DNA from: Physcia stellaris
Lineage: Eukaryota; Ascomycota; Lecanoromycetes; Caliciales; Physciaceae
Assembly: GCA_018902385.1 (NCBI GenBank)
Contig: JABSSW010000014.1
Location: forward strand, 62,001 to 126,000
Length of the DNA: 64,000 bases
Reading direction: 5' to 3'
The translations under genes and the position numbers were made by a program. The first letter of the stretch is position 1, and each line of letters opens with the position of its first letter. Positions 21,380 to 41,544 of the stretch are shown here, in pieces. The notes under the pieces are model-generated. The model made no database searches. It had not been told where the DNA came from and saw nothing but the letters and a program-made list of their open reading frames with translations.

Positions 21380-24300
21380 TCTATAATCCTGTGATCGGTC
21401 ATTTTAAGCCCACTGTATATCATAAACATACTGTGTACCATATCAGAATTAGCTGGCTTAAACATCCACATGATGCCATTGTTGAGTCATAGGTTTTTGT
21501 TGGGACCAAAGCGGAGTTCGACGGAGAGTTCAGAGTTTGGAACATGATCTGTTAGTAAAACGTCGAACTGTGATTTGAACCATCATTGAGGTTAGGTATC
21601 CCATGGTCTGGCCATAAGTGGTGCTAAATTTTATGATGCACCGACAGATCTGCCATTACCCGACCTTGGACGAACTTAGAAAATGATGTTTAGATTCATG
21701 TGACCTTCATGTGCTTTGTGTCAGAGACGAATAAGCGTTTTGTCATAATGAATGTGTTGATGACGATGCATCAAGGGCAGGACAGCATCACAGCAGACCA
21801 TGGAATATTGAGACATTTGGACCATCGATTGGTCTAAATGTCTGAATGTCAAATTTTCAAAAGTGATGCTGTATTGAAGTCGAAACGTTCCCAATACGAC
21901 ATTTTCAACGAAAGGATAGAATGGGAAAAAATCTTCTGGGTTAAGGGGTAGGCACCTGGAAATGCTCCAGATTTGACGCCACGTGCAGACGCGCCCACGC
22001 GAAAATCACGCTAGCGAAGCCGCTGTTGAAAACCGCCAGCCACGCTTTTAATTGCTTTCTCTTTCTCTTCCCTTATGCTGCAGCATGCTTCCTTCAATAA
22101 CGTCCTCTTCTTCCGTCATGGAACGATTCTTGACATAGGATTGCTACTTGACCACCAGCCATACCTATTCCGCCCATCCTCCACCGTATCCGCCAGTCGC
22201 TCAACCATCTGCCAAACGCGCTTGATCTCCTCTCCGTTTCCCTCTCCTCCCGATCTCTCGCTCTTCTAGAGCAACACAAAACAACGCAGCGCACCTTCCC
22301 TACAGTCTCCCGAAGCTCATCTTCTTGCCTCGCGCAGGAATGTTTCACGACCTCTCGTACGCACCTGCGGCTTCAGCCTGGACGTCACTTCTCGAGCCTC
22401 ACAGCATGGTCTCACATGGGATTTTGACAGCTCTGGACCTGGTTTCGCTGCGATCGCAAGATTGTAAAGGGTAGTGCGACGAGGATGGGTTTTCGGAACT
22501 TAACCCTAAGTTATCGTCGGTTTTAGTTTCGCGGTCATAGCTGTCAATTCTCTTATTAGTTTCTTGTCGTTCTTGTCTTGCTGGTTTCGGCCGGCTTGAT
22601 GGGGATGGCGAGTTTCGAAACGGGATTCTGACGTCCAGTGTCTCTTGTAGGCAGTGATGTGAAGGTTCTATGCGCCGGAATTGGTCAGACCTCCAGTTTG
22701 GAGGCGCGCGTCAGTCTCTTCTGCTGGACATCATGCTCTGGTAATTTTATGGGATGTTTTGTTGATTCTTGTGGAGTGTCGGTTCGGAAGACAGTAGGTG
22801 GGGTGTGTCAGGCCCTTTTGCTAAGGTCGTCTCTGGGTTCTTCATTTACTGTCGAAGTCCTTCGTTTGGTGTTGGCTCAGCCTTTCTTTGCAAAGCCATC
22901 TAAGATCATGCTTCTGTCGTTGAGAGTCTTCGCTAGTCACTTTCCACCACTGTCTGCGAGAGGATGCTAGGATTTTCTCTTTCCGAATTGCAATCTGAAT
23001 GTATGAAAAGCTATGAGCATGTTGGTGTCTACACTCGGGCTGTAAATCGATGTACACTTCACCAGGGTCTTGTGCCCTTTGAAGCAGAGATCATCTCGTC
23101 AGCACCTGTATATCTTGATCGCCAGCCAATGCTGTTTGCAAGATTACACAACGAGGTCTCCTAGCTCACAACAGGAGTGTACATCCTTTGCAACCGCTCG
23201 CGAGGTCGTTGCTGTATCAGTAACCGCCTCGTTGAGCTTATGGCACAACAGCCGCTCCGGCAAGCTTTGAGTCAGCCAGAAAGCATTTTGTCGACCGGAG
23301 AATCCGAAACAAGTCACGCAGACAACGGAAAGCGTCAACGCTGACATACACCCTCCTCGTCTGAAGAAAGCATTTTCGGGTTAAGCAAGGGTACCTGATC
23401 TTGCATCGAGTAAAGTACATTCAAAGCAGCGAAGACGTCCCGTACACATCCCCTCCTCCCAGCCTCCCCAGTCGGAAGCAGGGACCTCCTGTCCACTCCC
23501 CCATACCCCTATCTCGCTCACAAAGCCCGCATCACGGCACCAGCCACCGATGCCGAAGCTCCCCGCTTATCCCGACCAGACGCGTCAATTGTCTCCTCTT
23601 ACGTCTGAGCGTAAGGGTCGATCGACGAGCGCCGATACCCTGATCCTGCATCCTGCTCTCCTTCCTTTCGGGGTTGGGGCCGTGGCGTGTGGGATCACTA
23701 TACCTCCCGCCGAGGAGAAGAAGTACGATTTTTAAAGATGTTGTTTGTTCGCTTTCATGCCCTCCTGCCTTGACCTCTGTCTTTTTTTCGATGGGGGAAG
23801 AGGTGGGAGAGGAAACAAAGACTTGTCTCTGAGGGTACTGCATTACACACTGAGAGGTTTTCATTTCCCTTGTAGGGAGTTTTGGAGAGGGCGACCTGGA
23901 GATCTTGCGCGCTGAGGCTTTTGGGAGAATGGTTGGGAGGGATACGACCGGTGAGGCGGGCTTGGTTGGTGGAATGACGGTTAGTATCCCCTATCCAAGT
24001 ACCCTCCACGACTGAAAGAAGAGCGACACACTCGAAGCACAGCAGCTGCAGCCATCAACAACAAAGATCACCAGTCTCCACCCTCACACCTCCTTTCCAC
24101 CTCTTCCACCCCCATCCACCCCCACTATCCTCTCAACAATTCTAGCAACCCTCCAGAGCTACCGCAGCACACCCACCTTCCCACCCTCTCTAACCACCTC
24201 TCCCAAAACTTTCCCACCCCACCACCACTCCCCCCACCCCCATCCCACCCCAAGCCCCCACAGCACGCTTCCCACACACCTTGGAGAGTTTTGCACCGGA

Positions 24301-25355
24301 TCCCCAGACGCAAGGAGCAGGGCCTCTCCAGAGTGAGGATCAAAGCTTAGCGCTTGTCTGCCTCCCTGTATCTGCCGCTGTGCAAATCCCCCTCTCTCTC
24401 TCGGCCCCACTGGAATGGCCTCTGCTACTGTTGGTGCTTGGGATGCATTGGGATGGGAGTTCGGTGGGGAGTGACGGGGATTGGGAAGGGCGAGGCGGTG
24501 AGGAGGAAGGGGGCTCGCTGGGAGGACGCTGGGGTTTTGGGAGATTGTGGGTGTGGTGGCGGGGAGGGGAGGGGGAAGGGGGTGCTGTGGTAGGGGATGG
24601 GGTTCGGGGGCGGGGAAGTAGTGGGGGATAGGCCGAGGAGGCGGGCGCCGTCGTTTCTTGCTTCGGTGAGACGGCGGTGCGGGGGGCTTTTTTATAAGTC
24701 TTCCCTAATTTCAGGGGAATGAGAGGGGTGGCTGACTACGTCGTAGGAGTGCGGCGGGAGGATCCTGCGTCGGCGGGCGGTGGGGGTGGGGATGGCTTGC
24801 TGGCATTGAGGTGAGAGACTTTTGGGGTCATGAATTACTGGATGTTGGAGCTTGGGGCCTGGGCGGTGCGGTGAGTGATTTCTTTAAACTGATTCGTGGC
24901 CGGGGGCTCACTATGCACCTAGCAAACGACCTGGAAGACAGCTACAAACCATGCTGTTGCTGCAAGTACGGTTCGGTAGCTGGCAAATGGAGATTGCAGT
25001 AAATGGAGGCAACATTGAAGCAAGCAGGGATTGAAGCCAGCGAGTCCAAGCCCATGTTGAAGCAAGAGTACTCTCGACGAATGGCACGAATTAACTACGA
25101 AGGGAACACTCGTTGGTGGTTTTGATATAGCTCCAAGCACTGTACGGACATAGAGCCAACCTCTAATCTCCTAGCACTATCGCGTCAACATCTGCACAGC
25201 TGAAACAACCCCCGAAGCAAACTACAGACAACGATGAAAAGCAGCATGCCATGCCAAATGGGGTATATCATCGCCTCGTCCCGCTCCTCCCAAAACGCCC
25301 TTTCTCGTCCCGCCCTCTGTAACCCTTTTCCACTCCTTGTAAGGAAGCCATGAGT
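21380..25355. other. 4-kb stretch without a convincing gene
   Basis: No ORF has a recognisable domain. A nested inverted repeat lies at 21782-21872. From about 21960 to 22340 the sequence looks promoter- or leader-like (G+C-rich, CT-rich, with a cacgtg E-box). It is followed by a 44-codon ATG-started ORF at 22340-22474 that I cannot judge. From 24030 to 24340 the plus strand is C-rich; from 24440 to 24660 it is G-rich. A long non-coding transcript, or a gene with many short exons, could be hidden here. Confidence 0.4.
21782..21872. repeat. Nested inverted repeat
   Basis: The outer arms, 21782-21791 and 21863-21872 (acagcatcac / gtgatgctgt), are perfect. The inner arms, 21811-21823 and 21831-21843 (agacatttggacc / ggtctaaatgtct), have one mismatch and a 7-nt loop. 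The layout suggests a decayed miniature transposon or an RNA hairpin. No target-site duplication was identified. Confidence 0.6.
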
Positions 25356-27529
25356 TCATTTCCTCACGATCTTCAGCAACGGCGCAATCCTCGCCCTTTT
25401 GCTGAGCCCCACCCTAAACTTGACCTGCGAGCTGTTGAGCGGACTATGCACCGGTTTCGCCGTCTTGGGCGGCGTGGTAGGGGGTGTTGTGAGCTTTGCT
25501 GGTGAGACAGGAGGGGGAGGGACATTGGTATTGCTGCCTTTGCTTTGGGACAGGATTTTTGGAGGCGGATCCGTGGGTTCTGCGTCGTTGCCGGGTTGGA
25601 GAGGGTTTTCGTCGTTCTCGTCTGGGAGGATGACGGGAGCTAATTCGGATTTCTTCTTGCGGCCTCGTTTCTTGGGCGGGGCTTTGGTCGATTGAGGCGC
25701 GTCGGTCACTGTAGTCTCGTGATCGCTGTCGGCTGGAGCGGTTGCTTCGTCTGTTTTGCGCTTTTTGCGGCCTCGGGGTTTGGGGACTGTTGGTGTTGCT
25801 TCTTCAGGTGCTGGCGCTTCTGTGTGCTCGTCGTCCTCGTCGTCGGACGGAGCTGGCATTGTATTCGCTTTCCGCTTTCTCGAGCGCTTTGTAGGCTCCT
25901 CGTCGTCCGCTGAGTTCTCATCGAGGTCTTGTTCGGCGGGAGCTTCGTCGGTTGGCAAATCACGCTTGTTGCCATCTTCTTGCACTGATGGTATTTTCGC
26001 GGCATCCTGAATAACTTCAAGGACTTTGTCGCGCTCTTGGTCATCTATGGTTTCCACAGGCTGGGTATCTTGCTTCTTTGGTCTGCCTCTGCCTCGTTTC
26101 TTGGGAGAGGGGTCTGCTTGTGCTTGCTTGGCCTTCATCTCCTCCTCTTTGGCCCAGTACTGCTCCCATTGCTGATCTACAGCGGCTGCTTGACCGGGAT
26201 TTTTCTTCTGGCCCTTTAATCTGGGCCATAGCTTCGGGATAGCAGTGGTTGGCATCTTTGCTTCTTCCTCGTCTTCTTCATCTAGCTCGACCTTGGGCGT
26301 GGGTTTCTCAAGCGCGGTTGTTTTGCGTCTGTTCCTGGCCTTTCGCTTCCCTTTGACTAGGTCTTCGGGTCTTTTGGAGAAGTTTTCGGGGATGAGCAGA
26401 TCTTTCTCGTTATGGGTACCCCTTGATCGACTCGGCCTCGGCTGGTATTGGTCTTCCGGTAAGTCGATCGCTGGGCCATCTGAACTTAGTTCGTCGACGG
26501 CTGGCAAAACGCGTGCTTGCTGCTTCTGTAAGCTCCGTTGGGGATCTGTCTTTGAAGAACCGGCTGGTGGGAAGGAAAGTTCGTTCTGAGCGTCGACTTG
26601 ACCCGAATCATCCTTTGTGGACGACGTCGGCTTATCATCCAGATCATTGCTGCACTGGTTTTGGGGAGAGACCTGATGATCCGCCACCACAGATTCCTCA
26701 TTCGTGTAGTTGAGGAAGTCGTTTGTGCCGAAGCTGTTTCCACCTGACAGGTCGGTTGATGTAGGTTTAGTGGGTGTTGTATTTGGTATAGTGGGCCAAG
26801 TACTTGGATTAGACTGTTGACTCCGTGCACCGATGACGACTGCTGGAGTAGAAACTTTTTGTATGGACGTTTCAACCCTGAAGTGGCCTCCGAAACCGCC
26901 AGTATCAAGAACTGGGGTCTCCGCTGCTCCATAGCTGTCGAGCATAGCGTTCACCCTGCTGGCAGCAGCGCTGTCTTCCAAGGGGCTCTGTTCATCTTGT
27001 GCCTCTCCGTCTACGTGGTCATGCTTGCCTGACTCATAGGATAGCGACGATCTGCCAAGCTCATCTTCACTGTGTTCATAGATATTATCTCGATCCCGAG
27101 TGCTCTTGCCATATTTCTTCTGCTGCTTCTTCTCCTTGCCTCGTAGACTCGATACCGTAGCCCTTCGACCCTGACTTTTTGTCCACTGGGGTGAAAGTGA
27201 TGGCTGTTCGGATGAATGCCGAGACCTTGTCGTTGAAGGGTTCGACTCTGGTGTCGGCTCAAGCAGGTTTTTGTGCGCTTCTCTCAATTCGCGACTAAGA
27301 CGATCTAAATGCCGATGTCAGCTTCAGCGTCATGGTTTCGAGATCGAGACGGACCCGTCGAGCTTGTACTTGGCTGCTCTGATTGTTGCATGATCTTGGG
27401 AGGGGACGAGCTTGGAAGGTCAATGATCGTATCAAGGCTCAATTGAAGTGGCTCATCTTCTGGTGGCGGTGGACTGCCGGCTTCGTTGGACTCGTCATCC
27501 GAGTCTTGAACGACCTTGCGAGCTGCCAT
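25356..27529 (-). CDS. AT-hook DNA-binding nuclear protein
   Basis: Exon 2 is 25356-27304. Exon 1 begins at ATG 27529 and ends at 27355 (gtccgt donor, 50-bp intron, 707 residues) or at 27370 (gtacaa donor, 65-bp intron, 702 residues). Both keep phase 1; the branch ctgac and acceptor tttag are shared. The protein is charged and mostly disordered. It carries at least three AT-hook-like cores: KKRGRGRPKK, KPRGRKKRK and PPKKRGRKKK. AT-hooks bind the minor groove of A+T-rich DNA, so it is nuclear and chromatin-associated. A YQPRPSRSR motif sits mid-protein. The last 20 residues form a basic, hydrophobic motif (FRVGLSKRARIAPLLK) that looks conserved and is discussed as a finding. The precise role is unknown. 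Confidence 0.8.
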
Positions 27530-27908
27530 CACTGTAGCTTCTCGTCGACTTCCTTGGCAGAGGCAGTTGTGGACAAATACTTAGGTGACGCGAGAACATC
27601 GCGCTTTGCCGCGTGACACGTGATGCCAAGCTTAATACACAGTATGTAAAGTACCTAAGCCTGCAGATGTGACAGTGGCAAATGTATGTACAAGCCCGAT
27701 ACACTCACTGCTCCAAGACGAAACCGGGGCGCAAAGAAGGTTGAGACCAACATTCCAAGGCTCCATTCGAATCAATACTTCCATTGTTTTCAATCCTACA
27801 TTTCGATTGTTCTACGACAAGAGAAGCCCGCATTTCCGATGCTTACGGGTTTTTACAAATGACAGTTCACACGCCAACGCTTGCCTGACATTCGGATGAT
27901 CATCTAAA
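27530..27908. other. Intergenic between AT-hook gene and HeLo pseudokinase gene
   Basis: 379 bp that contain the AT-hook gene promoter and the 3' end of the HeLo gene (both minus strand). No ORF or RNA gene is supported. Confidence 0.5.
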
Positions 27909-29666
27909 CTATATAACACATCGACTGAGCTCCCGTACAGCAACATCTAAGATGTTCGGTGCAAATATTTGCCCTTCCTCTTTAGTCATCGCTGGTGACT
28001 CATATATCTCCCCACTGAGCATCATCTTCGTCACGGCTGCGTATGTGTTTCCCATGCGAAACCGTAGCGATGCGAGGCCCCCTTTGGCACTTTCATCCAG
28101 CAGAAAAGGTTGGATTTTTGCCAGCTGAAGCAGAGACACATCACCTTTTCCAACATCTACGACCCTCTCCACCAAGCTTCTTAGGGAACGCCACTCGCCG
28201 ATCTCAAGGAGGATCGTACCCAGTGCATAAACATCTTTCGCTGCCGAAAAAGATTCTGAGGGTTCTCCCATAGCTTCAGGATGGCGATAGATGTCTCGTT
28301 GAGGATCAGCAGAGGGCTGTTCTGAGACCTCTGACGGTGAGTTTAGCCTGGAGAAGCTAAAGCCCGCGAGCATCGGAAAATTTAATGACGGCCCCGCAGA
28401 GTTATTCTTTTCTTTTGATGGAAACAGCAGGATGTTCTCTGACCGGAGATTCTTGTGCAGCCACCCTGCCATGTGGAAGAACCTGACGCTTTCTGTAATG
28501 CTGAGGGCAAGCTGTAGCCTCTCCGTCAAACTCGGAGAACCTCCAAATGCCGTACGCAGCGGCCTTGGTGGCTGAAGAGCCGATGATAAGGGCCATTCAA
28601 AGATGCAAGCAATTCTGGATGTATGGGCATCGGAAGCTATCCCTCTACACCTTAAAGAGCGAAAATTGGGGTGTTTGGGAGCTCCGAGTAGAATTGCAAG
28701 ATCCTGCACCCGTCCCATGATCTTACTACGGGAATAAACTGGCAACTCTTTCCACTCGACGAAGACAGCTTCTCCTTCATAACTGGCCATACCCATCTCA
28801 GAATTGCCTTTGACTGCGGCAAAATCGCGAATATTACCACCAACCAGCTTGACAGCAGCCTTCCCTTGCCGCTCCTGGTGCGTATACAGAGAAGAAGTTT
28901 CCGGATACGTCTGGGAAGGGGTAGCACCCATGCCCATGCCGATCGCCTTGATTGTAGCCACACTGGCAAGAGAGGCACTTTCGCTGCCGAAATTCGCTGA
29001 GCCCGAGCTCATGGATGAGTGCTCAAGTGCGTCTTTAAGAGCATGAAGTTCCTCAACCTTGTAGCTCATGTTGATTACATGCGAGAGGACCATTTGAAGT
29101 CCCGAAGCCATCTCATCCTGCCTTAGAGGATCCAGAAGACGCCACAAGTCTTGCACGAAAATTCGAATTTGGCTCACATAGTCTTCGAATTTCGACTTAT
29201 CAATAGTGGCCCACCTCAGCCGCTGAGGATAGGCGTTTCTATCTTGGATGAGCCTGGCTCTGAGCAAGATATCTCTTCGCGCATCGTCAGATATTGCAGC
29301 ATTGAGAGCGCCGACGGCAGGCTGTGGGCTCACATCATCATCGGCGATCTGCAAACCAAGCTTGTAGCGCTTCTTGAGTTTTTCGGTATCCGACAACAGA
29401 CTTTCCAGCTCTCTCAGGGCAGCTTCCACGACTGTGGAATTAAGCCTCCTGTCAAGCTCATTGCTTCCAGATAGTAGACCCGCAAGCCTGGCCCATTGTG
29501 TCAATTGAACTTCCTGTAAATTGAGCATGCATATCAGAGTAGTACTATCTTTGCCTAGATTCTGTGCTGTTGACAGCAGCATGAAACCTTTGATACAGCC
29601 AGCGAACAGCTGGAAGGACAGAGAAATCACCCCCAAGCCTAGGCCAGCAACGGAGAGCGGGTCCAT
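27909..29666 (-). CDS. HeLo-domain pseudokinase (MLKL-like architecture)
   Basis: A single exon encodes 585 residues from ATG at 29666. Residues 1 to about 215 fit the HeLo (prion-inhibition and propagation, HET-S N-terminal) domain: MDPLSVAGLGLGVISLSFQL, then a glycine/aspartate turn, then VQLTQWARLAGLL. The hydrophobic N-terminal helix is the part that inserts into membranes in HET-S. A Ser/Gly/Met-rich linker (about 218-295) follows, then a protein-kinase fold to the end. The ATP-site lysine may be K306 (VFVEWK). The catalytic loop reads WLHKNLRSEN (404-411), so the HRD aspartate is asparagine. DFG is replaced by AGF (434-436). An APE-like HPE (462-464) and the subdomain IX DVYALG remain. 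The catalytic residues are therefore lost, as in pseudokinases. HeLo proteins are known executors of fungal regulated cell death. Its divergent neighbour is an active-looking kinase with ankyrin repeats. That this protein kills cells is an inference. Confidence 0.85.
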   Translation of the reverse strand: MDPLSVAGLGLGVISLSFQLFAGCIKGFMLLSTAQNLGKDSTTLICMLNLQEVQLTQWARLAGLLSGSNELDRRLNSTVVEAALRELESLLSDTEKLKKRYKLGLQIADDDVSPQPAVGALNAAISDDARRDILLRARLIQDRNAYPQRLRWATIDKSKFEDYVSQIRIFVQDLWRLLDPLRQDEMASGLQMVLSHVINMSYKVEELHALKDALEHSSMSSGSANFGSESASLASVATIKAIGMGMGATPSQTYPETSSLYTHQERQGKAAVKLVGGNIRDFAAVKGNSEMGMASYEGEAVFVEWKELPVYSRSKIMGRVQDLAILLGAPKHPNFRSLRCRGIASDAHTSRIACIFEWPLSSALQPPRPLRTAFGGSPSLTERLQLALSITESVRFFHMAGWLHKNLRSENILLFPSKEKNNSAGPSLNFPMLAGFSFSRLNSPSEVSEQPSADPQRDIYRHPEAMGEPSESFSAAKDVYALGTILLEIGEWRSLRSLVERVVDVGKGDVSLLQLAKIQPFLLDESAKGGLASLRFRMGNTYAAVTKMMLSGEIYESPAMTKEEGQIFAPNILDVAVRELSRCVI

Positions 29667-29946
29667 TCCGATACTCAGCGCTTCTGCTGGTATCTGTGCC
29701 TAGACTCACATTTGATCTTTCGTTGACTGTCCAGTCGTTCTTCGTGCGACGACAGACCCTCAATTGGGTTGAGAGAGATGCATGGGTTATTCTTAGCTCC
29801 CAGCAAGTCTTGGCGAGCCTTCTAGATCACACAGCCGGTTCCCCAACCTCGGACTCCTCAGAAACTTTGGTGCTAGAGATACGCGGCCTCTCAAGTCCAT
29901 TTCATGTACAGAGCTTGATCCATGTACATGTAGACCAGCGAACTCA
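29667..29946. promoter_or_regulatory. 280-bp shared divergent promoter
   Basis: The start codons of the HeLo pseudokinase (-) and the kinase-ankyrin gene (+) are separated by 280 bp, so both promoters must lie here or overlap the genes. No TATA box or well-known operator stands out. The compact head-to-head layout suggests joint control. Confidence 0.6.
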
Positions 29947-32900
29947 ATGTCATCCTACCGGCCTCGTACACCTCCTCGGTCCACAATCGGGTACTCTATC
30001 GACGTCTCAAGCGACTCAAGCCGAGGGGTATCAAACCGACTTGTAGGTGGAAAAGCTACTCTGAACCGATCGACTTACGTTCCTCATGTCTTCGATCTCG
30101 TATATCCGGCTCGTGATGCTGTCAATTTGTCCAGCAAATACATTCCTCCAATCTCCCTGGAAGCAGAAACTGTGGACTCTTCGGTCCTTCTCGGTCATGG
30201 TGCGTCTTTTACTGCAAGCTTGCAACGGATCCCAATAGGCCCAAAAACAATTGAGGTCACCACGCAATTGCCCGGATGGTCAACAACATCAGTCAAACTT
30301 GCCCCACCGAGGCCAGCATATGTCGTCTATAAAACAGCCAGAATTGCCTTTGGTAAAAACGGAGAACCTTTACCGCAATACCAAAGGGCTATGCAGAGCG
30401 TGCTCACCGAATTTCACTCCTTAATCAATCCTTCGCTATTCAAGCATCCCAATGTAATCGACTTCCTTGAGATAGCGTGGGGATCTAACCCTTTCTCGTC
30501 GCTACATAAGCTACCTGCTCTTGTTGTTGAGTACGCAGATCATGGGACGCTCTCCAAACTTCTAGCAACCCATAAGGATCTTGACTTTGATATCAAGCAT
30601 TTGCTTTGCCTGGATGTTGCCCGCGGTTTATCCGCGCTTCACGAAGCTGGCCTTGTCCATGGTGACATAAAAGCTGATAATGTTCTGATATTCACTGGTT
30701 CCGACCGCAAATTTCTGGCCAAATTATCAGACTTCGGCTTCTCGATCATTGCAGCTACAGAGTCTAGTGAGGTCTGGATGGGAGGAACAGATCCATGGAG
30801 GGCACCTGAAATAAGAAATGGGCCCATTAAGCTTGATAATGCGGTGAAGACTGATATTTACTCATTTGGATTGCTAGCCTGGCTGATTTCCTGTAACGGC
30901 CAAAAACCTTTTGACTTTCTTGCAGACGGAGGACTAAAAAATGAAGACGTGGAATTACTCAAACAGAGCGATGCGCTTCTCCCAGAGGCGAAAGGAAAGC
31001 CCTGGCTACTCAGGTATCTCAAAGCGCAACAGGGTCCTGGATTCCATAAACGCTTTGAACAAGCTGCTACGACCGTCTTTAACCAGCAACAAACGGCTGA
31101 TACTGTACGCGCCCAAATTATGGGCCTCTCGCCGATGGTGCGCGATCGGTTTTTCACTGAACTTTCTGCTCGAACCCTGGAAAAAAGGCTTGTGAGAAGC
31201 CTTGACGACATCTTCGACTTTTCTCTGACACTGGACTCGGAGTCTCGTGATCTGGATGTCATAGTAACAGTCCTTGAATCTAGCCTCTACCCTAGCGCCG
31301 ACAGCTTATCTTCACAGAAAGAGAACAGCGATCCTAATGGACAGCAGCTCATCAAACACCAGACAAATATCACTAATGACTCCAGCGAACCCCAACATTT
31401 TATTGTGACCCCCCAGCAAACTCAAGTTGACCAATTCGTCAGTAACTCTCCAGGTGCTGCTAGCTCTCACACCGGGGATCGATCAACATCATCAAAATTC
31501 GAAAGTCGAGCGGGGAATGGTGCACAGATTTCGGCCTTTTGGACCGAAAGAGGATTCAAGGTAAGGCTGATTACCACATCAATTATGAAGAGCAGTGCTG
31601 AGCCATGAAAATTCCAGAAACATTGGTTCTCCTGGCAGAAGACTAGGGAGCTCCAGCCATCCGTGCAGAATTTCGTTTTCGACTCATTCAGAGGTACAGA
31701 CAACACAGCCAAAAGTCCGGAGCTTTTCATGATCTGTGCCTATCGTATGAATGGATATGGGTGTAAGCAAGATACAGATGAGGCTTTGCGCTTCTTGCAG
31801 CAGGCTGTCGCGCTTGGACATCACCCTGCTCGAGCGTTCATGTACCGGATATGGAGAGCGTGCCGACCTGCAGAAGTAAATCCAGGCCTCCAGTATCTTG
31901 AGGACTATGCGAAGGCAGGATCACGGCCAGCACTTGCAGATATCCAGGAATCGTTCCGCACAGATGAGGTTGAACGGATCTGGCGCTGGATAACCGATGC
32001 GAGCGGTGGTGTTGGCGCTGCTTGGCTTTCAAATTCTGAGATGCTGGACGGTCATACCCAAAGTCAATGGATCGGCGATGCTTGGCTAATGGACAAAGTC
32101 CGTGAATGTATACCTCTAAAGCCACTTAACCAACTCGTGGTCAACAAACGGGGCGACAGCGTCCTTCATTTCGCGGCTATGTGCGGTCGGTGGAAGCCGT
32201 TCAAAGCCCTGATCTTGGACTACGAACTGGATATTAACCTCCAAAATCCCCAGGGTGAGACGCCTCTGCTAAGCGCCAGTCGCGCTGGACACGGTGGCAT
32301 AATCATCTTATGTCTACAGAAGTTCAATGCAAACGCTTCTCTCGCGGCCATGAATGGTGAAACACCCCTTCACTGGCTGGTACAATTCGATGATGAGTGG
32401 ATCGAGCCAATCATTAAAGACATGATTGCCAGAGGAGCCAACATCGATGCCGCAACGCAAGAACGAGTCAGTCATTCTGTATATCCTGGGCACATTGATG
32501 TAGACTTTCAATTACCAGGGACTGCCCTTAGCTGGGCGGTTCACCACAATAGACCTCACATCGTTCAGATGTTGCTCAGATACGGTGCAAACCCAAATCC
32601 TACCGTACGTGGAAGGACCCTCAGCACTGCTGAGATGGCAGCTTATTACCATCACCACGAATGCTTAAAAGCTATCATCGAGTTTCTTGAATCTAAAGTC
32701 ACTCGCACCACTTCAGACGGTCAAATCGACAAACGACACGCAGTATTGTTTGGTCCACTCGTCATTGAAGCCGAAAAAGCAGCCGATAAATTTTCAATGA
32801 TCCTGCGTGGGGGGGCCGATTATCTGAATCGCTTGCATGCTACTTTGGATCTTTTGCAACAAAAAACCGAATTCGCGAATTTCCAAGGTCAGATGGAAGG

Positions 32901-33966
32901 CAGTATGCTTTATAGAGCTGTATCAAATGCCCATGATGAATGTGTGGATTATATGTTTGCAAATAGTTGGCTGGTTGAGACAATTGATTTACCTATAGGT
33001 GAGGCGAGGAGAACACCAATATTAGAGGCTATACGATGGAATCGAGAGACACTTGTTCAAACCCTGGTTGATCATGGAGCAGACATCCACGCCCTCGCAG
33101 CGAACCCCTTCGCGCCTGCAGAATCCAATTGGTCAGCGCTGCACATCTACGCCCACGAAGGCCATGACAGAGACCTTTCCTTGGTACATCAAATCGTCGA
33201 AATGGGCTTTCCAGTGGAAGGGCCGTCGGAAGCCGGTAGTGCTCAAAACATGCCTCCTGATATTAGCACTCTGTCCATTGCCGGCAAGCAAGGACCCAAC
33301 CAGATTAATGAAACTCCGTTCGCTGTGGCCATTCGTCACAATGCTTTCAATCTTGCAGACACCCTTCTGTCACTAGGCGCCGGCGCTAATAGCCTCTCGA
33401 CCACCTCAGGCTTATTCCACGTTGTCAATCCTTTGACTGTGCTTGGCCACGTCATAGTCTCAAACGCGCGCTATTGCCACGCTAGATTGAATTACCTCCT
33501 CAACCTCGCGGGAGATTCAAGCGTTTCATTTATTGTCGAGCCCAAGCGAAATCTCAGTGCACTCCACAGATGCGCCATGGCTCACCTAGAAGTGATGAAA
33601 AGGACTGATGGTGGAGCACTAGTATCAAGACAGGAATTTGACACGGACACCAACGCAGATATCATGTACGAGCTACTTAGAAAATGGTCCAGACCCGAGG
33701 AAATAGATGCCAAAAGCGGTATTGATGGTAACACAGCTCTTCATCTAGCAGTTATGGTCCAAAATCTAGGGACCGTGCAGAACTTGCTAGAAGCCGGAGC
33801 TTCTGCAGCTATCGAGAATGAGCATGGAGAGACGCCGCTACAGCTTGTCAGGAAGATTCTTGAGCGTACGTCTGAGGGTCAGCAGATTGAAGCTCTTCTG
33901 GCGAACCACGTGCTCTTGCGGAACTTCGTCGAACAGCAATCGACTAGCGAGGATCGGACTGCATAG
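29947..33966 (+). CDS. Protein kinase with Sel1-like segment and ankyrin repeats
   Basis: Exon 1 is 29947-31560 and exon 2 is 31618-33966. The 57-bp phase-0 intron has a gtaagg donor, a ctgag branch and a ccag acceptor. The product has 1320 residues. The kinase domain spans about 80-400. It has a glycine-rich loop LLGHGASF (81-88), a candidate VAIK lysine K129, catalytic loop LVHGDIKADN with D240 and N245, DFG at 262-264, APE at 286-288 and KTDIYSFG. All catalytic residues are present, so it should be an active Ser/Thr or dual-specificity kinase. Around residues 570-610 is a Sel1-like unit (GYGCKQDTDEALRFLQQAVA). From about 716 to the end come several ankyrin repeats (GDSVLHFAAMCGRWKPF, GETPLLSASRAGHGG, GETPLHWLV, GNTALHLAVMVQNLGTVQNL). 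Kinase followed by ankyrins recalls animal RIPK4/ANKK1, although orthology is not claimed. It is divergent from the HeLo pseudokinase, 280 bp away. Confidence 0.88.
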
Positions 33967-36169
33967 ACTGTGCGGTTGTCACACAAGACTATCTGCCTAT
34001 TCTGCTTCCACTCTCATCGATGGCTGGAAATGCCACGGAGAAAGAACTCCGCAGAGTTCATGGCTTGATGGCCTGGAATTATGGCCACCACCTCATACTA
34101 TGACTGTCTTCTCTGGGGACGGCGTTGCTGAGCACAACTCCTTATCAACTTCGGTCTCACTCATCTGCTTAGTTGGACTTAGTAGAATGGCTTTAGATCA
34201 GGAATTTCCACGAAGGGCTCTAAATTCGCCTATCAAGAGATGTCTACCAGGTAGAAGCTCCATTTACATACCTACCTAGCGACGGACGTGCCAATTGATT
34301 AACGGGCATGGTCGCAACGGTTTCTATGCTTCGACTTAATGGGAAAAAAACCATAGGGGCTGAACGCGTCCTGCATGATTGAATCTGGGGTTACAGTCAT
34401 GCTCGTATCGTAGATATATATGTGGCATCAACGACTCAATCACAACCGTAAAGTCAAAAATCTCGCCTGTCCCAAAGGCATTGGAAAGGATATCCTTGAA
34501 TACCAGATGGTCGCTGTGCTTATCCTGCAACCATCTGATACAACGATTTCCTGGAGTTTTGAATGTCATAGGATCCGCTGCGCTGACGAGTCCTCAAATC
34601 GCTTGATATCTCAAATCGTCATATTGTCAAGTCCCCAACCATAGCATCCAATCCTCAACTTTTCAAACCGTCTTACCGAGGTAGTGATCATCGCAACGTA
34701 CTATCCCGGATGCCTCAAGTTCCGGTATCCTCTAGCTGATGACACACAAGTGCAGCTTACCCATCCTATCCTATTAAATCTGGATGCAAGATGAGGAATG
34801 GAAATACTACGTCGTGGGAACCATAACGTCGCTGGCAGCATGGAATCCGAGAAAAATGGGGATGGATGGAATTAAGAATGGGTTAGCGAGGCTCTCCCAC
34901 CAAAAACAAGAAAAAAGGCAAGAAAAGACATTTATGGAAGAGAGGAAATCAAATAGCTAAAACAGAACCCCTAGCTAGGCTGAGGGTCTGGCCTTAGAGA
35001 GTATCGGTTTGTCCATCTTATCTGGCTGACGGTGTACTCCTCTCGCTAGCCGGCCGTAGACAGATGTGTCGATTCAGTGCAAAGTTGTGGTTGGACATGA
35101 AATGTGGCTTTGATTTTAAATTTTCTACTCGACTTCATCAACAGTCTCGGAAGTCTGCAGCTTGTCGTCTTCTCTTCTCTGCTCTTCTCTTTCCTCCCAT
35201 CGACAAGGCAGATCGTTGCCACATCCTCCACAAATTCGCATACACCTCACCTCACATTCACCAAACCCCCAACCAACCAACCCTTACGCGAATCATTTCA
35301 TTCCGCCCCGCCCCAATTTCCCTCTTTTCTGATTCCTGCCCTCTCATGAATGAATACAGGACTCGAGTCATGGAATGAAAAGAGTCGAATTTTTGAATCG
35401 AGGCAGTTTCTTTGCCCCCCCCCCCGCTTTTCTTTTCTCCTCTTTCTTTTTTGTTTGGTACTGTCGATGTGTCGATTGTAACTGCTTGAGATACTGGATT
35501 TTGAGGATGGGAGGTGGGGGCTGGGGGATGGGGGATGGGGATGGGATGTGCGATTGGGGGTTGGGGGGGGAGGGAAGGGGGAGCTGGGGAGCTGGGATGA
35601 GGAGGAGGAATGAGGAGGGGAAATGAGGTGGGGAGATGGGGAGGAGAGGAGATAGTGGAGGTCAGTCTGGGGAGGGGAGTTTGAGTGGGAGGTGAACGAG
35701 AACGAGGAGAAGAAAAATGACAAAAAAAAAAAAAAAAAAAAATGAAAAGGACAGAAGATAGTAGTCAGATCAGCTCGAGTCGAAATTGAGATGAAAAAAG
35801 AAGAAGAAAGAAGCAATAGTAGATACAGAAATGGGAAAGAAGCGGTGAAGGAGAAGAAGACAAGAAACTCGAAAAAAAGACCGTTGCCGCTCTCGTCCTG
35901 TTTCTGTAGGGAAGTTCTTTGGCTGTGTGTGATGGAGGGTTGCTTTCGATTTTGGAGACCATCTGCGAAGTGACTGGATGAATGTCGTACTCTGGGAGAT
36001 GGGATGCAACATGGCTGACCGTCATTTGTTATTTTCCTAGTACTTGAAGCAAACGAAAGTCAATCTCAGCAAACTACATACATACAACCAAAAAACAACC
36101 TCCTTCCCCGCGCTATCAAAAACCCATCATTCTGCCACCACCACCTCCTTTTCGAACACAGGGGCCTCT
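33967..36169. other. 2.2-kb intergenic stretch, low-complexity right half
   Basis: No convincing gene. The left part is the 3' region of the kinase-ankyrin gene. From about 35150 to 35450 the plus strand is pyrimidine-rich, with an 11-C run at 35415-35425. From about 35500 to 35880 it is strongly purine-rich, with GGGGATGGG-like tracts and a 21-A run at 35722-35742. It ends at the 3' end of the aldehyde dehydrogenase gene. Confidence 0.5.
35500..35885 (+). repeat. Polypurine tract with G-runs and poly-A
   Basis: About 385 bp are mostly A and G on the plus strand. G-runs of 4-9 dominate 35510-35680; gaagaa-type runs and 21 consecutive A residues dominate the rest. The tract is capable of G-quadruplex or triplex formation. 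It is not a tandem repeat with a fixed unit. Confidence 0.75.
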
Positions 36170-37959
36170 CTACCCAAAAAGCGCATCCCCAAGCCTAATC
36201 GAAACCGTCTTCGTCTGCGAATAATTCGCCAACGCCGCCTCCCCCAGCTCCCTCCCAATCCCACTCTCCTTAAAGCCCCCAAACGGCAACTGGTGATGCA
36301 AAATATTATACTGATTAACCCAAACCGTGCCGGCCCTCAACGCATTACTGACACGGATAGCGGTGTTGAGGTTGCTCGTGTGGACGGCGGCGGCGAGGCC
36401 GTAGGTGGTGGTGTTGCCCACGCGGATGGCGTCGGCTTCGTCTTTGAATTTGGCGATGGAGCACACCGGGCCGAAGATTTCTTCTTGCATTATTTTCATG
36501 TCTGGGGAGACGTTGCTGAAGATGGTGGGCTGGATGAAGTAGCCTTCTTTGCCGTGGCGTGAGCCGCCCACTTCGAGTTTTGCGCCGTCTTTTTTGCCGC
36601 TGTCGATGTAGCTGTTTTCTATTGTTAGACTGTTTTTGTTTTTTTGTTGTTTTTGTGGTTGAATAGGTTGGATAATTAGGAGCGAAAAAGAGAGGGAAGA
36701 CTCACCCCATAATGCGGTCATACTGCAGCTGGGAAACTTGTGGTCCTTGGAAGGTATCCTTGCCGAAAGGATCGCCAATGACGTTCTTCTCCGCCCTTTG
36801 CTTGAACCTCTCGACGAACTCATCATAGATGTCTTCCTGGACGTAGATTCTCGATCCCGCGCAGCAGCATTGTCCCTGATTGAAGAAGATTCCAAAATTG
36901 ACCCACGAGATCGCGTTATCGATATCCGCGTCCTTGAACACGATGTTCGGGCTCTTGCCACCAAGCTCCAGGGTAACCTTCTTGAGATTCGACCCGGCGG
37001 CAGCCTTCATGATCTGACGGCCTACGACGGTGCTGCCGGTGAAAGCCACCTTATCCACGTCCATGTGCGCGGATAGAGCGGCGCCGGCGATCTTGCCAAA
37101 GCCAGAAATGACATTGATGACGCCTGGGGGAAAGCCGGCTTCTTTCACCAATTTGGCCGCATATAAACCGCTCAGGGGAGTTTGTTCTGCGGTTTTGAGG
37201 ACGACGGTGTTGCCACAGGCGATGGCAGGTCCAATCTTCCATGCCCACATGAGCAATGGGAAATTCCATGGGATGATTTGGGCGCAGACGCCGATCTGGG
37301 CCTCATCAGCATGGTAACCATATTCAATTGCAATTGTATTCTACCCACAGGCTCCTGTCTGGTGTAATTGAACGTCTCTGAATTAACCTCAATGACTTTT
37401 CCCACGATCTTGTCCGCCCAACCCCCGTAGTATCTCAAGGTTCCAGCACACATGCCAATATCGACCTTGGCCAAGCTCAAGGCCTTGCCGTTATCTAGAG
37501 ACTCGATGGCTGCGAGCAAATCGCTGTTCTTTTCGAAAAGATCGGCCAGGTTGACAAGATACTTGCCACGCTGCTCTGGAGTGACTTGTCGCCAGGTTTC
37601 CTCGAAGGCTTTGCGCGCTGCGGATACGGCGATGTCGACATCTTTCTCGGTGGCTTCGTGGACGGCTGTGATGGGCTTCTCGTTGGTGGGATTGATGGTG
37701 TCGAAGGTTTTGCCATCGACGCCTTTGACGAATTCATTGTTGATGAACCTGGGCAGTCAGTGGAAGCAGATGGGATTGCAGGTGGGACAGAGTAGGACGA
37801 GGCGGGGTGGGGTATTGTTGTGGGATACACGAAAGCGAGTACCCGGGTGAAGAAGTACGACAGATGCAGGCGCTGGTTGAAAAGGTCGAGGACTTACAAT
37901 CCAGTAGGTTGTTCATACTTCCCCGTCTGGGGTGTTTCTAGAGTTGTAGAAAGAGACAT
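36170..37959 (-). CDS. aldA: Aldehyde dehydrogenase, AldA type
   Basis: Four exons fit exactly: 37898-37959, 37349-37748, 36706-37295 and 36170-36611, with introns of 149, 53 and 94 bp. They give 497 residues, the length I recall for Aspergillus nidulans AldA. The start [11 protein letters not shown] leads into [15 protein letters not shown] across the first intron. The Rossmann block ([14 protein letters not shown] across intron 2, then [20 protein letters not shown]), [11 protein letters not shown], the glutamate in LELGGKSPN and the catalytic cysteine in [12 protein letters not shown] near residue 300 are all present, followed by EEIFGPV and [14 protein letters not shown]. It oxidises acetaldehyde and other aldehydes with NAD(P)+ and serves ethanol and threonine catabolism. 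The donor of intron 2 is gtgggt rather than the overlapping gtagaa, because only that keeps the EPIGVC motif. Confidence 0.95.
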
Positions 37960-38924
37960 GATAGATGTATTGTGAGAAGAGACGAGTGGTAGCAGGGTCA
38001 GTAGAAGGAAGTGTAACAAAGATGGAGAATGGAATTGTAGTCAAAGAAAATAAAACGTCAAGTCTTGTTGACAGTGAGGTGCCTTCTCCGCACGGGGTGG
38101 ATTGACGCAACGGTATGGATTGGATGGAGGGGCATTGTCCATTGAGAGCCGAGGGGCAAACGGAAGAAGGGCAACCCCTCATCGGCAAAAGAGAGGTGCG
38201 TTCGTCCGCTTTGCGCTTATTTCCTATTTCCATTCTTCCTGTTCTAGAACATCAGATGAAGCGCTACCTCGTCCTGACTTGGCACCCATGCATCGAGATC
38301 CAGCCTGCTTGCCTGACATAACATGCAGCATCGCTCAACCAAGCATGCGTCAGATGCACTGTCATCAGCTTCCCGATGCCCGTATCTACTACCGCACCAA
38401 AAGAACATCTACAAAATCTTTGAAAAATGCAGACAGAAATTTTTCTAGAAAATGGACTGAACTCGGCAAGGCAGGAGACTAAAAGATACTCACGCTAAGA
38501 ATTGACCCCTGACGAATGTCATCATCAGTCGGGGTCAAGGGAACCGAGTCGCTGAAGATCACCTCAGTACGCTGCTGGGTCATGGCCCACAGCTGCGACT
38601 GAGATGGAGTCGACCTGCTGCAGACCCGGTTTGCGGATCGAGATACCGATGTATCTCAGATCAGGTCTAGATAATGTACATAAGGTAATTGTCTGAGATC
38701 AGTAGCATCACAAGGGTAGTAGCATGACATTAACAATGAAAGTGATTAGACAGACCAATGAGGCCTTGATACCTCAATGTTGTAAGTACATTACCTCTAG
38801 CACCATAGTAACCACTCTCAATGTATATCGACCAACTCTGGGGGGTATCTTTCATGTACAAGCACTCTCAGCTTCCTGTACGTACGTTGCTAGATCGTCA
38901 GTTCGTCAAGGCTTAAAGTGGCTT
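37960..38924. other. Intergenic between Mre11 3' end and aldehyde dehydrogenase promoter
   Basis: About 965 bp without a recognisable gene. Both flanking genes are on the minus strand, so this is the promoter side of the dehydrogenase and the terminator side of Mre11. An ethanol-regulator site was not identified. Confidence 0.45.
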
Positions 38925-41185
38925 CTATCTCCTGCCTCTGGACTTTGCCGTCGAAATCGGCTCAAAGGCGTCGTCGTCGTCGGAGATGTCATCGCTGATC
39001 TCGTGAACCTTCTTCCTCCCGTTGCTTTGCGTAGCCGGCTGTGAAAAGGTCAACTGGGATTGTTTAGACGCCGCCTTCGCCGTCGGTCGAGCAGCTGTAC
39101 GCCTAGCCGGAGAAGCGACTTTTCTCGCAGGTGCTTTGCGAGCCGGTTTGGCAGCTGCCTGCTTCACAAAGAGCGCGTTCTCATCGTCGTCGTCCTCGTC
39201 CAACATCTGCACATCGTCATCCTCCTCCTCGCTTTCTTCTTCCACGCCCTTCTTCTTCCCTCGACCGGTCGTTTTGGCAGGTACGGCTTTCTTTGTTGCT
39301 GCAGCGGTCTTCGACGTTGCTGCCTTTCCGCGGCCTTTTGTAGGCTTCGTGACTGTCTCGGCATCGTCTCCATCTTCATCAACATCATCACCCGTATGGT
39401 CAATGGCAGCCTCCTGATCTTCCCACGGGCCGAGTAACTCTTCGTCATAGTCGTCGGGCTGAGGCTTGAGCTTCGTTCTCCTTAATTTTATTTGACCGCT
39501 TGCAAACATCTCTTCGAGCCTTGCTTTGCACGCTGCCATTCTCTCTGCGACATCGTCATCGTCGCCATACTCTTCGTTGAAGAGGAAGCCAACCTGCTTC
39601 TCGAGACTATCGCTGACGAAACTCTCCATCGAGTGCTTATCGTCCTTCTTGACAAATTGAGCAACGGCATCGCCGAACGAGTTCTGGGGTAGTATCGTGA
39701 GAGACTGTGCCTCCAGGAATTCCTCAACAATCTTCTCCACTTTAACGCCAGGATCCATGGACAACTCCGCCAAAATGGATCCCTCTGGCATGTCCGCACC
39801 CTTCGTTTGTCGTGTGGCCCCCTTTTTCTTTCGGTGATACTGGATCACGTCGTTAACATTAGCAACTTTGTCGATGAATCGATTAGAGAAGCGTTGCGGA
39901 TTCTCGCAGTCATAGCTTCCACCGTTTGGCATGCCGTACTCAACTCGGAGTCTTACCAGCGGCAACGGTGGCTTGACTTCTTCATCGTCATCTTCAGGCT
40001 CATCTTGAGCTTCCATCCACTCCTCATTTGCCTGCTGAATTAATTTCTCGACAATATTCATCAGATATTGTGTGACCTGCGTTCGGTTGTTGGGTGATTT
40101 GATGTGTTTCTTGGCTTCCTTGTCATCGGACAAGACGATCTCTTTCATTACAAATGGACGAACAGTCTTCAGTCGGATACTTTCTGACTTAAAGTCTTTT
40201 CCCGTGATACTGAGGATGGCAACGTGTTTCGCAACAGCCTCGCCAGGCGAAAGTGATGTGGCAACCGAAGAGCCTGGTTGCATGACATGGAAATCCATTT
40301 CGGGATTGTATGTTGGGTCGATCTTGCATTCATGTTCATGGCCCCAGATAACGAAATGCAGAAATGAGGGCAAAAACTCTTCTGGAAGGTATCCTTTTTC
40401 AGTATACGCATGACTGAAGATGGATTAGTTGTATTGAACGCTCGACCATATCCTAGTACTCACTGATTTTGGTGGACACTCATGAGATTAAACCAATCAT
40501 CTTTCTGTACACCAGGCCTGAAGAACTTGACTTTCTGGTCGCGAAAAGTCCTGAACAATCGCTCGTCTCGCACATTGCTCATGCCATAAAGAGCCAGCTT
40601 TGTATTACCCTTTTGTAGAAGCACCGGCTTGACCTCGATGTTGTCTGATTCTGGTGTTCGTCCGTAGTAGTTGACCAAGCCGGCCGTCTGTAGCAGGTCG
40701 AGCGCCGCAAGATGGCCTTCTCCAGTAGGGTCATCGTGATTACCATGGATCGAGAATATAGGTATAGCGATGTTGATGTCGGGATCCTCATAGTTGACGT
40801 GATTGAAGGCGCCTTGGAAAGTCTCACTTCCGTCACTGAGCATCTCTAATTCGCAAGGCTTTTCTCCGTAGCAATTCATTCTCATCGACCTCATCACCTG
40901 GAACATTGACTTTCGTGAAGGCTTGTTCTCATGGAACAAGTCCCCTGCCAAAAGAATCATGTCCACATCCCGGTCTTTTGCCAGACACATGACTTCGTGA
41001 AAACTCTTCCAGCTATCGTCACCCCGTATAGGGTCTCTCTCGTTGTAGCCAACATGGCTATCCGTAGCAACGAGGATGCGGATGGTATCTGCTACTAGAA
41101 GCCCAGACGTATTAGGCTCAGATGCTGGATCAGACTTGATCGTCATCGACGAAGCATTGCTGTGCTCACCGGTAAGTGCAGGCAT
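38925..41185 (-). CDS. mre11: Mre11 DNA double-strand-break repair nuclease
   Basis: Exon 1 is 40464-41185 and exon 2 is 38925-40413. The 50-bp intron has a gtgagt donor and a ttcag acceptor. The product has 736 residues. The calcineurin-like phosphoesterase motifs are complete: TDSHVGY (D42, H44), GDLFHE (D82), IHGNHDD (149-152), VHQNHHAYTE rebuilt exactly across the intron, and GHEHEC near 265. The DNA-binding/capping domain follows ([20 protein letters not shown]). The C-terminal 200 residues are acidic and basic tracts with an SQLTFSQP stretch. Mre11 works with Rad50 and Nbs1 to sense and resect broken DNA ends and to maintain telomeres. The catalytic set is intact. It is divergent from the uS19m gene. 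Confidence 0.96.
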
Positions 41186-41544
41186 AATTGCTGAATCAGT
41201 CCTGAGGGACCTTCACCTGTTGCGAGCACTTCCTTAGCTGACAACCTGCAACAGGAATTCATCGTGTCTAAATACCTTGAGATTATCCACTCCATTATCA
41301 CAAGCTTTGGTGACACACCGCTGTGTCGCGAGACGGTTGGAAGTAACTCAGCTCTGCAATCGTCTAGGTAAAACCTTGTCACGCAGGCACGTGAAAGGAG
41401 GTGTGACTCGATCGCGCTAGCTAGATCCTGCATAATTTTGTGCAGCACACTTAGATCTATGTGTTAACGCACAATTCCAGCACTTCGTCACATACTCGTA
41501 GTACCCCGTACTTCGATAGATTATCGGGCCCATAACCAAGCATC
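41186..41544. promoter_or_regulatory. Divergent promoter region of mre11 and uS19m
   Basis: 359 bp between the start codons of the two divergent genes. No ORF is supported, and no specific factor site is claimed. Confidence 0.5.

What the first reader, a model, noticed from the sequence alone, without database searches (positions are those of the whole stretch)
27909..33966. Head-to-head HeLo-pseudokinase and kinase-ankyrin genes: a fungal look-alike of the RIPK/MLKL necroptosis module
Seen: an intronless 585-residue gene with a HeLo-type N-terminus and a kinase fold that lacks HRD Asp and DFG. It is divergent, over 280 bp, from a 1320-residue gene with a complete kinase and C-terminal ankyrin repeats. 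Known: HeLo domains execute fungal cell death and are related to the four-helix killer domain of MLKL; MLKL pairs that domain with a pseudokinase and is switched on by RIP kinases, some of which (RIPK4, ANKK1) end in ankyrin repeats. HeLo proteins fused to kinase-like domains are common in fungal databases but hardly studied. Inference: the ankyrin kinase senses a cue and phosphorylates the pseudokinase, releasing the HeLo domain to attack membranes.
Basis: partly seen in the sequence, partly recalled or inferred. Interest (0 to 1): 0.85.

Follow-up and report, generated by a model that had tools for sequence, protein, structure and literature searches.

The report
Fungal HeLo-pseudokinase beside ankyrin kinase
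A fungus carries, back to back, a gene for a likely cell-killing membrane protein tied to a dead kinase and a gene for a live-looking kinase with ankyrin repeats; the layout resembles the mammalian necroptosis pair, but one locus alone cannot show that the two work together.

Summary
Gene A (27909-29666, minus, 585 aa) has a full-length HeLo domain (PF14479, E 1.4e-40) and a kinase-like region reading HKN for HRD and GFS for DFG. Gene B (29947-33966, plus) gives 1320 aa if one 57-nt intron is spliced: kinase, weak Sel1 repeat, ankyrin repeats. The ATGs lie 280 bp apart, divergent.

The segments compared show no shared amyloid-type motif, unlike het-S/nwd2, whose divergent effector-sensor layout is the nearest published precedent seen. 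A 2025 review already mentions HELL domains joined to kinase/pseudokinase domains. Only the pairing with an ankyrin kinase could be new. Chance neighbours remain at least as likely.

The parts
27909..29666 (-). Gene A, 585 aa HeLo-pseudokinase, no intron needed
   Evidence: open frame from ATG 29666 to stop 27909
29037..29645 (-). HeLo domain, residues 8-210; the most hydrophobic 19-residue stretch of A is residues 4-22, at the N-terminus
   Evidence: PF14479 E 1.4e-40, profile 1-205/205; HET-s chain 2wvo E 2.1e-4; hydropathy 1.79
28200..28514 (-). Pfam-matched part of the pseudokinase domain (residues 385-489)
   Evidence: PF00069 24.5 bits, below cut-off 31.7; PF07714 21.9, below 23.1; DUF7580 18.2, below 27
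28449..28457 (-). HKN in place of HRD (catalytic Asp replaced by Asn), residues 404-406
28356..28364 (-). GFS in place of DFG, residues 435-437; a serine-rich loop runs to YRHPE at 460-464
29667..29946 (.). 280-bp intergenic region between the divergent start codons
   Evidence: one imperfect 14-nt inverted repeat only
29947..31560 (+). Gene B exon 1: N-terminal extension and protein kinase domain
30190..30918 (+). Kinase domain (Gly-rich loop LGHGASF at residue 82 to residue 324)
   Evidence: PF07714 E 6.8e-22 on residues 150-324 and PF00069 E 1.7e-21 on 150-323; Gly loop read by eye, motif positions
30658..30666 (+). HGD catalytic motif (non-RD kinase), residues 238-240
30730..30738 (+). DFG motif intact, residues 262-264
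31561..31617 (+). Predicted 57-nt GT-AG intron
   Evidence: only donor in the tested stretch that keeps the frame open; five alternative acceptors; no transcript data
31618..33966 (+). Gene B exon 2: Sel1-like and ankyrin-repeat region to stop
31744..31821 (+). Weak single Sel1-like repeat
   Evidence: PF08238 E 0.0051, 17.8 bits, below cut-off 30.7
32164..33813 (+). Ankyrin repeats, several groups
   Evidence: PF12796 E 1.1e-33, 5 stretches

Best explanation
Gene A most likely encodes a membrane-attacking cell-death protein: a HeLo bundle whose first helix would insert into the plasma membrane, held in check by a dead kinase domain that acts as a switch. Gene B most likely encodes its dedicated partner: ankyrin repeats bind a cue, and the kinase domain then switches A on, by phosphorylating the serine-rich loop of the pseudokinase or with the help of direct contact. 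Shown here: the domains, the loss of catalytic motifs in A, motifs in B that look intact, and the divergent 280-bp arrangement. Inferred from relatives: killing by HeLo. Pure inference: that B controls A, and that phosphorylation is the switch.
For: Full-length HeLo match and a weak best match to HET-s structures. A's pseudokinase has HKN and LAGFS where two MLKL chains of the PDB have HGN or HRN and LAGFE, in a direct alignment. A's loop 435-464 holds six serines; in the alignment to 4m68, A's N-S-P-S (442-445) falls on N-S-I-S of MLKL, which I recall as RIPK3 phosphorylation sites of mouse MLKL. B keeps lysine, Glu, HxD and DFG by eye. Precedent for the layout: het-S and nwd2 of Podospora anserina are adjacent and divergent and work as effector and sensor (PMC3321046 passages); a 2025 review says fungal necroptosis-like pathways are often two- or three-gene clusters and that some HELL domains are joined to kinase/pseudokinase domains (PMC12881547 passages). 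[quoted passage not shown]
Against: One locus in one genome; no second copy of the pair was seen (searches found no relative, in collections of viral, bacterial and archaeal contigs). Another divergent pair with 498 bp between ATGs lies in the same window. The window otherwise looks like housekeeping genes (DENN, TBC, F-box, aldehyde dehydrogenase, MRE11, TRF); no other HeLo, HET or NLR gene was recognised in the 20 further reading frames scanned. Base composition of the pair lies within the range of the other genes measured, so nothing marks it as a unit or an island. MLKL is not among the 60 shown of 155 matches to A's kinase part, and A aligns to MLKL (scores 77 and 80) no better than to B (86 on a similar stretch), so the shared motif losses may be convergence. 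HMMER's own alignment of B to MLKL puts B's HGD on HGN/HRN but does not put B's DFG on GFE. Non-RD kinases tend to low activity (PMC8463890), so B might not phosphorylate anything.
Confidence: 0.33

Rival explanations
1. A is an ordinary fungal HeLo-pseudokinase, perhaps a death effector answering to some other sensor, and B is an unrelated ankyrin kinase. Their adjacency is chance in a compact genome, picked out because both look immune-related.
For: Another fairly short divergent gene pair lies in the window; the recognised neighbours are housekeeping genes; no shared motif was found between the segments of the two proteins that were compared.
Against: If HeLo genes outside NLRs number about 7 per genome as in P. 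anserina (Table 4 of PMC4835503, passages), and kinase-ankyrin genes about 20 (assumed) among some 14,000 genes (Hymenoscyphus, PMC8254937 passages), about 0.02 adjacent pairs are expected per genome.
Confidence: 0.42
2. The pair is a real unit, but B works without catalysis: a cue makes the ankyrin kinase assemble, and it switches A by direct pseudokinase-kinase contact, as a scaffold or as a guard of A.
For: B is non-RD (HGD); in the plant receptor EFR, a non-RD kinase, catalytic activity is dispensable for immunity (PMC8463890 passages). A and B kinase lobes are recognisably homologous (26% over 148 residues; 0 of 500 shuffles reach the score).
Against: The homology is what kinases in general show; the catalytic residues of B look intact by eye.
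Confidence: 0.15
3. Amyloid templating, as in het-S/nwd2: the partner passes a prion-like fold to A.
For: Same effector-sensor divergent layout as het-S/nwd2.
Against: A has a kinase-like C-terminal half. Of six simple RHIM/PP-like or Q/N-rich patterns none occurs in A and only one, a Q/N run, in B. Nine comparisons (A 1-40, 209-300, 500-585 against B 1-78, 345-560, 1280-1320): eight are at chance, and the ninth (A 209-300 against B 345-560, 81 of 2000 shuffles) is not notable among nine.
Confidence: 0.03
4. A no longer kills and acts as a regulator or decoy: HeLo and pseudokinase serve as binding modules.
For: Pseudokinases are often scaffolds (recalled); the HET-s allele shows that a HeLo protein can lack killing activity (PMC10197012 passages).
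Against: The HeLo match is full length with a hydrophobic N-terminal stretch.
Confidence: 0.07

Closest known systems
MLKL-RIPK3 necroptosis module (mammals)
   Same: N-terminal helical killer domain of the same superfamily (PMC12881547 section 18) joined to a pseudokinase; HxN and GFx at the same two sites in a direct alignment; a kinase as neighbour.
   Different: No RHIM-like pattern found; the pseudokinase of A is not specially close to MLKL; B is not specially close to RIPKs; B has Sel1-like and ankyrin repeats, RIPK3 does not (recalled); activation not shown.
HET-S / NWD2 (Podospora anserina)
   Same: HeLo effector next to a repeat-bearing sensor, divergently transcribed.
   Different: That sensor is a STAND/NLR protein with an amyloid motif shared with HET-S; here a kinase-ankyrin protein, no NOD domain matched by Pfam, no shared motif found, and HeLo is joined to a pseudokinase, not a prion domain.
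Fungal HELL proteins with kinase/pseudokinase domains (PMC12881547)
   Same: Same idea of protein architecture; the review calls it reminiscent of MLKL.
   Different: The review speaks of HELL; A matches HeLo PF14479. The passages seen do not mention a linked ankyrin kinase for these.
RIPK4 / ANKK1
   Same: Kinase followed by C-terminal ankyrin repeats (recalled).
   Different: No RIPK among the 60 matches shown of 1635; B has an extra Sel1-like region.

Membership tests
HeLo domain proteins (PF14479) | full-length match to the HeLo profile above cut-off | tested here: met
   139.8 bits against 23.2, profile 1-205/205
HeLo domain proteins (PF14479) | fold like HET-s HeLo | tested here: inconclusive
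   2wvo E 2.1e-4 by sequence; own model mean pLDDT 40.4, no fold search made
HeLo domain proteins (PF14479) | membrane insertion and killing | not testable with these tools
   needs experiment
Pseudokinase | kinase-like domain with loss of catalytic Asp and DFG Asp | tested here: met
   HKN and GFS; the kinase match itself is below Pfam cut-offs
MLKL family | helical bundle of the HeLo/4HB superfamily followed by a pseudokinase | tested here: met
   as architecture only; the superfamily link rests on the literature
MLKL family | pseudokinase closer to MLKL than to other kinases | tested here: not met
   MLKL absent from the 60 shown of 155 matches; ULK, PERK, KSR, RIPK1 and others lead, all weak
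MLKL family | activated by phosphorylation by a partner kinase | not testable with these tools
   needs experiment
RIP kinase family | kinase domain closest to RIPKs | tested here: not met
   best matches EGFR, MLKL, CTR1, LRRK2; no RIPK in the 60 shown of 1635
RIP kinase family | RHIM (some members) | tested here: not met
   simple patterns only, no RHIM/PP-like pattern in A or B
het-S/nwd2-type amyloid pair | motif shared between effector and sensor | tested here: not met
   nine segment comparisons, not the whole proteins
het-S/nwd2-type amyloid pair | adjacency conserved between species | not testable with these tools
   no fungal genomes; searches found no relative

The most novel reading that the evidence does not exclude
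Fungi have a kinase-switched branch of necroptosis-like death: an ankyrin-sensing non-RD kinase encoded divergently beside the HeLo-pseudokinase that it triggers, a counterpart of RIPK3-MLKL that needs neither an NLR nor amyloid templating, with the trigger serines at the same place of the pseudokinase loop.
Probability: 0.2. Interest if true: 0.78.

Novelty: new variant of a known kind. Interest (0 to 1): 0.45.

Why it matters
In the passages I read, fungal HeLo killing is switched on through NLRs and amyloid templates or sits on NLRs themselves, and the 2025 review asks how far fungal death and necroptosis correspond. A linked kinase and HeLo-pseudokinase would add a kinase-based route and make that question directly testable in a genetically easy organism. 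If the adjacency is chance, the locus is merely one more HeLo-pseudokinase.

Tried and rejected
Relatives: the search for related loci with A and with B's exon 1 or part of it, in viral contigs and genome contigs: patterns matched 0, 4, 29 and 33 stretches, none a relative by tblastn. B's ankyrin exon was not searched. Two degenerate motif scans of viral contigs gave 0. These collections hold viral, bacterial and archaeal contigs, so the failure says little about fungi. The window's own genome is not held.

Structure: A whole (mean pLDDT 34.2) and its HeLo part (40.4), each as a single sequence, are too poor to use. I made no fold search with them and do not count the predicted helices as evidence. 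B was not modelled.

Amyloid templating between A and B: not supported. Island or recent acquisition: GC and third-position GC of A and B lie within the range of the other genes measured, B's exon 1 at the low edge for third positions (0.454, shared with one neighbour); the aldehyde dehydrogenase row of that table was cut out of frame (5 stops) and is dropped. The substitution index used for RIP is higher in the two 1-kb blocks over A (1.54, 1.65) than in the other 13 (1.21-1.46); I draw nothing from it.

It does not: there HMMER places GFE a few residues before DFG of B. I therefore aligned A directly to the two MLKL stretches, where GFS falls on GFE.

Literature: ten searches; two returned no papers. 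None of the listings or passages seen describes a HeLo-pseudokinase paired with an ankyrin kinase, but only open-licence papers are held; the 2016 PNAS paper on HELL is not. Papers were seen as passages (PMC12881547 also section 18), none whole. In PMC8254937 the word match was to Helotiales and similar words; I use only its gene count.
Full report
What is there. Between 27909 and 33966 lie two genes transcribed away from each other, with 280 bp between their start codons. Gene A (minus strand) is one open frame of 585 codons. Gene B (plus strand) consists of two long open frames that join into 1320 codons if the 57 nt from 31561 to 31617 are removed as a GT-AG intron. That is the only donor found in the tested stretch that keeps the frame, with five alternative acceptors giving 1303-1313 residues. 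Chance open frames of 585 and 767 codons are very unlikely (about 1e-12 and 2e-16 at the GC of gene A).

Gene A. Residues 8-210 match the HeLo family PF14479 over its whole length (139.8 bits, E 1.4e-40). Against solved structures the best match of this part is HET-s HeLo (2wvo, E 2.1e-4). The most hydrophobic 19-residue stretch is residues 4-22; the reviews place the inserting helix of HET-S at the N-terminus. The second half is kinase-like but below Pfam's cut-offs (PF00069 24.5 against 31.7 bits). The alignment to ULK2 puts HKN on HRD and GFS on DFG; the Asn of the catalytic loop (SEN) is kept, and VEWK at 303-306 looks like the beta-3 lysine motif by eye. The loop 435-464 holds six serines.

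Two MLKL chains (6vbz and 4m68) turned up as matches of gene B. Aligned directly to gene A, they show HGN or HRN where A has HKN, and LAGFE where A has LAGFS. So both proteins lost the same two Asp in a similar way. In the alignment to 4m68, A's N-S-P-S (442-445) also falls on N-S-I-S of MLKL, which I recall as RIPK3 target sites in mouse MLKL; that recollection comes from no call, and the loop alignment holds gaps. None of this shows descent: the score (77 and 80; 0 of 1000 shuffles reach it) is what kinase homology gives, and A aligns to B about as well (86). By sequence search A's kinase part is closest, weakly, to ULK1/2, PERK, KSR and RIPK1 among others (E 0.003 to about 0.1), and MLKL is not among the 60 shown of 155 matches.

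Gene B. The kinase domain scores E 6.8e-22 (PF07714) and 1.7e-21 (PF00069). Its best solved matches are an EGFR chain with two kinase copies, MLKL (6vbz, 3.4e-16), CTR1 and LRRK2; I read this as TKL-like. No RIPK is among the 60 shown of 1635. Glycine loop, lysine (129), a likely alpha-C Glu (155), HxD and DFG are present by eye, so 'complete' is fair. But the motif is HGD: a non-RD kinase. [quoted passage not shown] Exon 2 holds a weak Sel1-like repeat (below cut-off) and several groups of ankyrin repeats (E 1.1e-33).

Surroundings. Pfam recognised DENN, TBC, F-box, aldehyde dehydrogenase, MRE11 and TRF genes among 20 further reading frames scanned, out of 36 frames listed, which include overlapping frames and those of A and B. 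No other HeLo, HET or NLR gene was recognised among these 20; the rest were not scanned. MRE11 matches a 730-residue solved MRE11 best (7zr1, E 1.8e-109); I recall this as Chaetomium, so a filamentous ascomycete is likely, but the species is not identified. Composition does not set the pair apart.

Does the pair act together? Not shown. Structure prediction from single sequences failed. One mechanism could be examined: the amyloid hand-over of het-S/nwd2 needs a motif shared by effector and sensor. Nine comparisons (A 1-40, 209-300 and 500-585 against B 1-78, 345-560 and 1280-1320) gave eight at chance level and one at 81 of 2000 shuffles, which is unremarkable among nine; no RHIM/PP-like pattern was found. 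So, if the two genes form a unit, it is probably not by that route, which makes a kinase-type or contact-type switch the likelier link.

What is known. The het-S and nwd2 genes of Podospora are adjacent and divergent, and the linkage is kept across the species analysed while orientation changes (PMC3321046, passages). [quoted passage not shown] So the architecture of A is not new. I recall that HeLo-kinase-like proteins and kinase-ankyrin proteins are each common in filamentous fungi; that comes from no call. In my ten searches I saw no description of the two as a pair.

Judgement. Works like MLKL/RIPK: possible, about one in three for a functional unit with B upstream, with further weight (0.15) on a non-catalytic variant. 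Is a member of those families: not on the sequence evidence, since A is not closest to MLKL and B is not closest to RIPK. Chance neighbours are at least as likely as the preferred reading (0.42 against 0.33); I state the unit as the mechanism because it makes testable predictions and has a close precedent in layout. One comparative-genomics run over fungi would settle most of it.

Noticed in passing
30658-30666 (+): Gene B's catalytic motif is HGD, so it is a non-RD kinase, a class linked to innate immunity in plants and animals.
   Followed up: partly
28449-28457 and 28356-28364 (-): A's HKN and LAGFS align with HGN/HRN and LAGFE of two MLKL chains, and A's NSPS (442-445) with NSIS of one of them; convergence or descent not resolved.
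   Followed up: partly
38925-41212 (-) and 47638-49629 (-): MRE11 and a TRF-type telomere-binding protein gene lie within 10 kb of each other in this window.
   Followed up: no
25356-27317 (-): Long, strongly charged open frame (653 aa stop to stop, with a GRGRPKK stretch) directly downstream of A on the same strand; no Pfam match at E 0.001.
   Followed up: no
28000-29999: (CpA+TpG)/(ApC+GpT) index is 1.65 and 1.54 in the two 1-kb blocks over gene A against 1.21-1.46 in the other 13 blocks from 24000 to 38999; perhaps coding bias.
   Followed up: no
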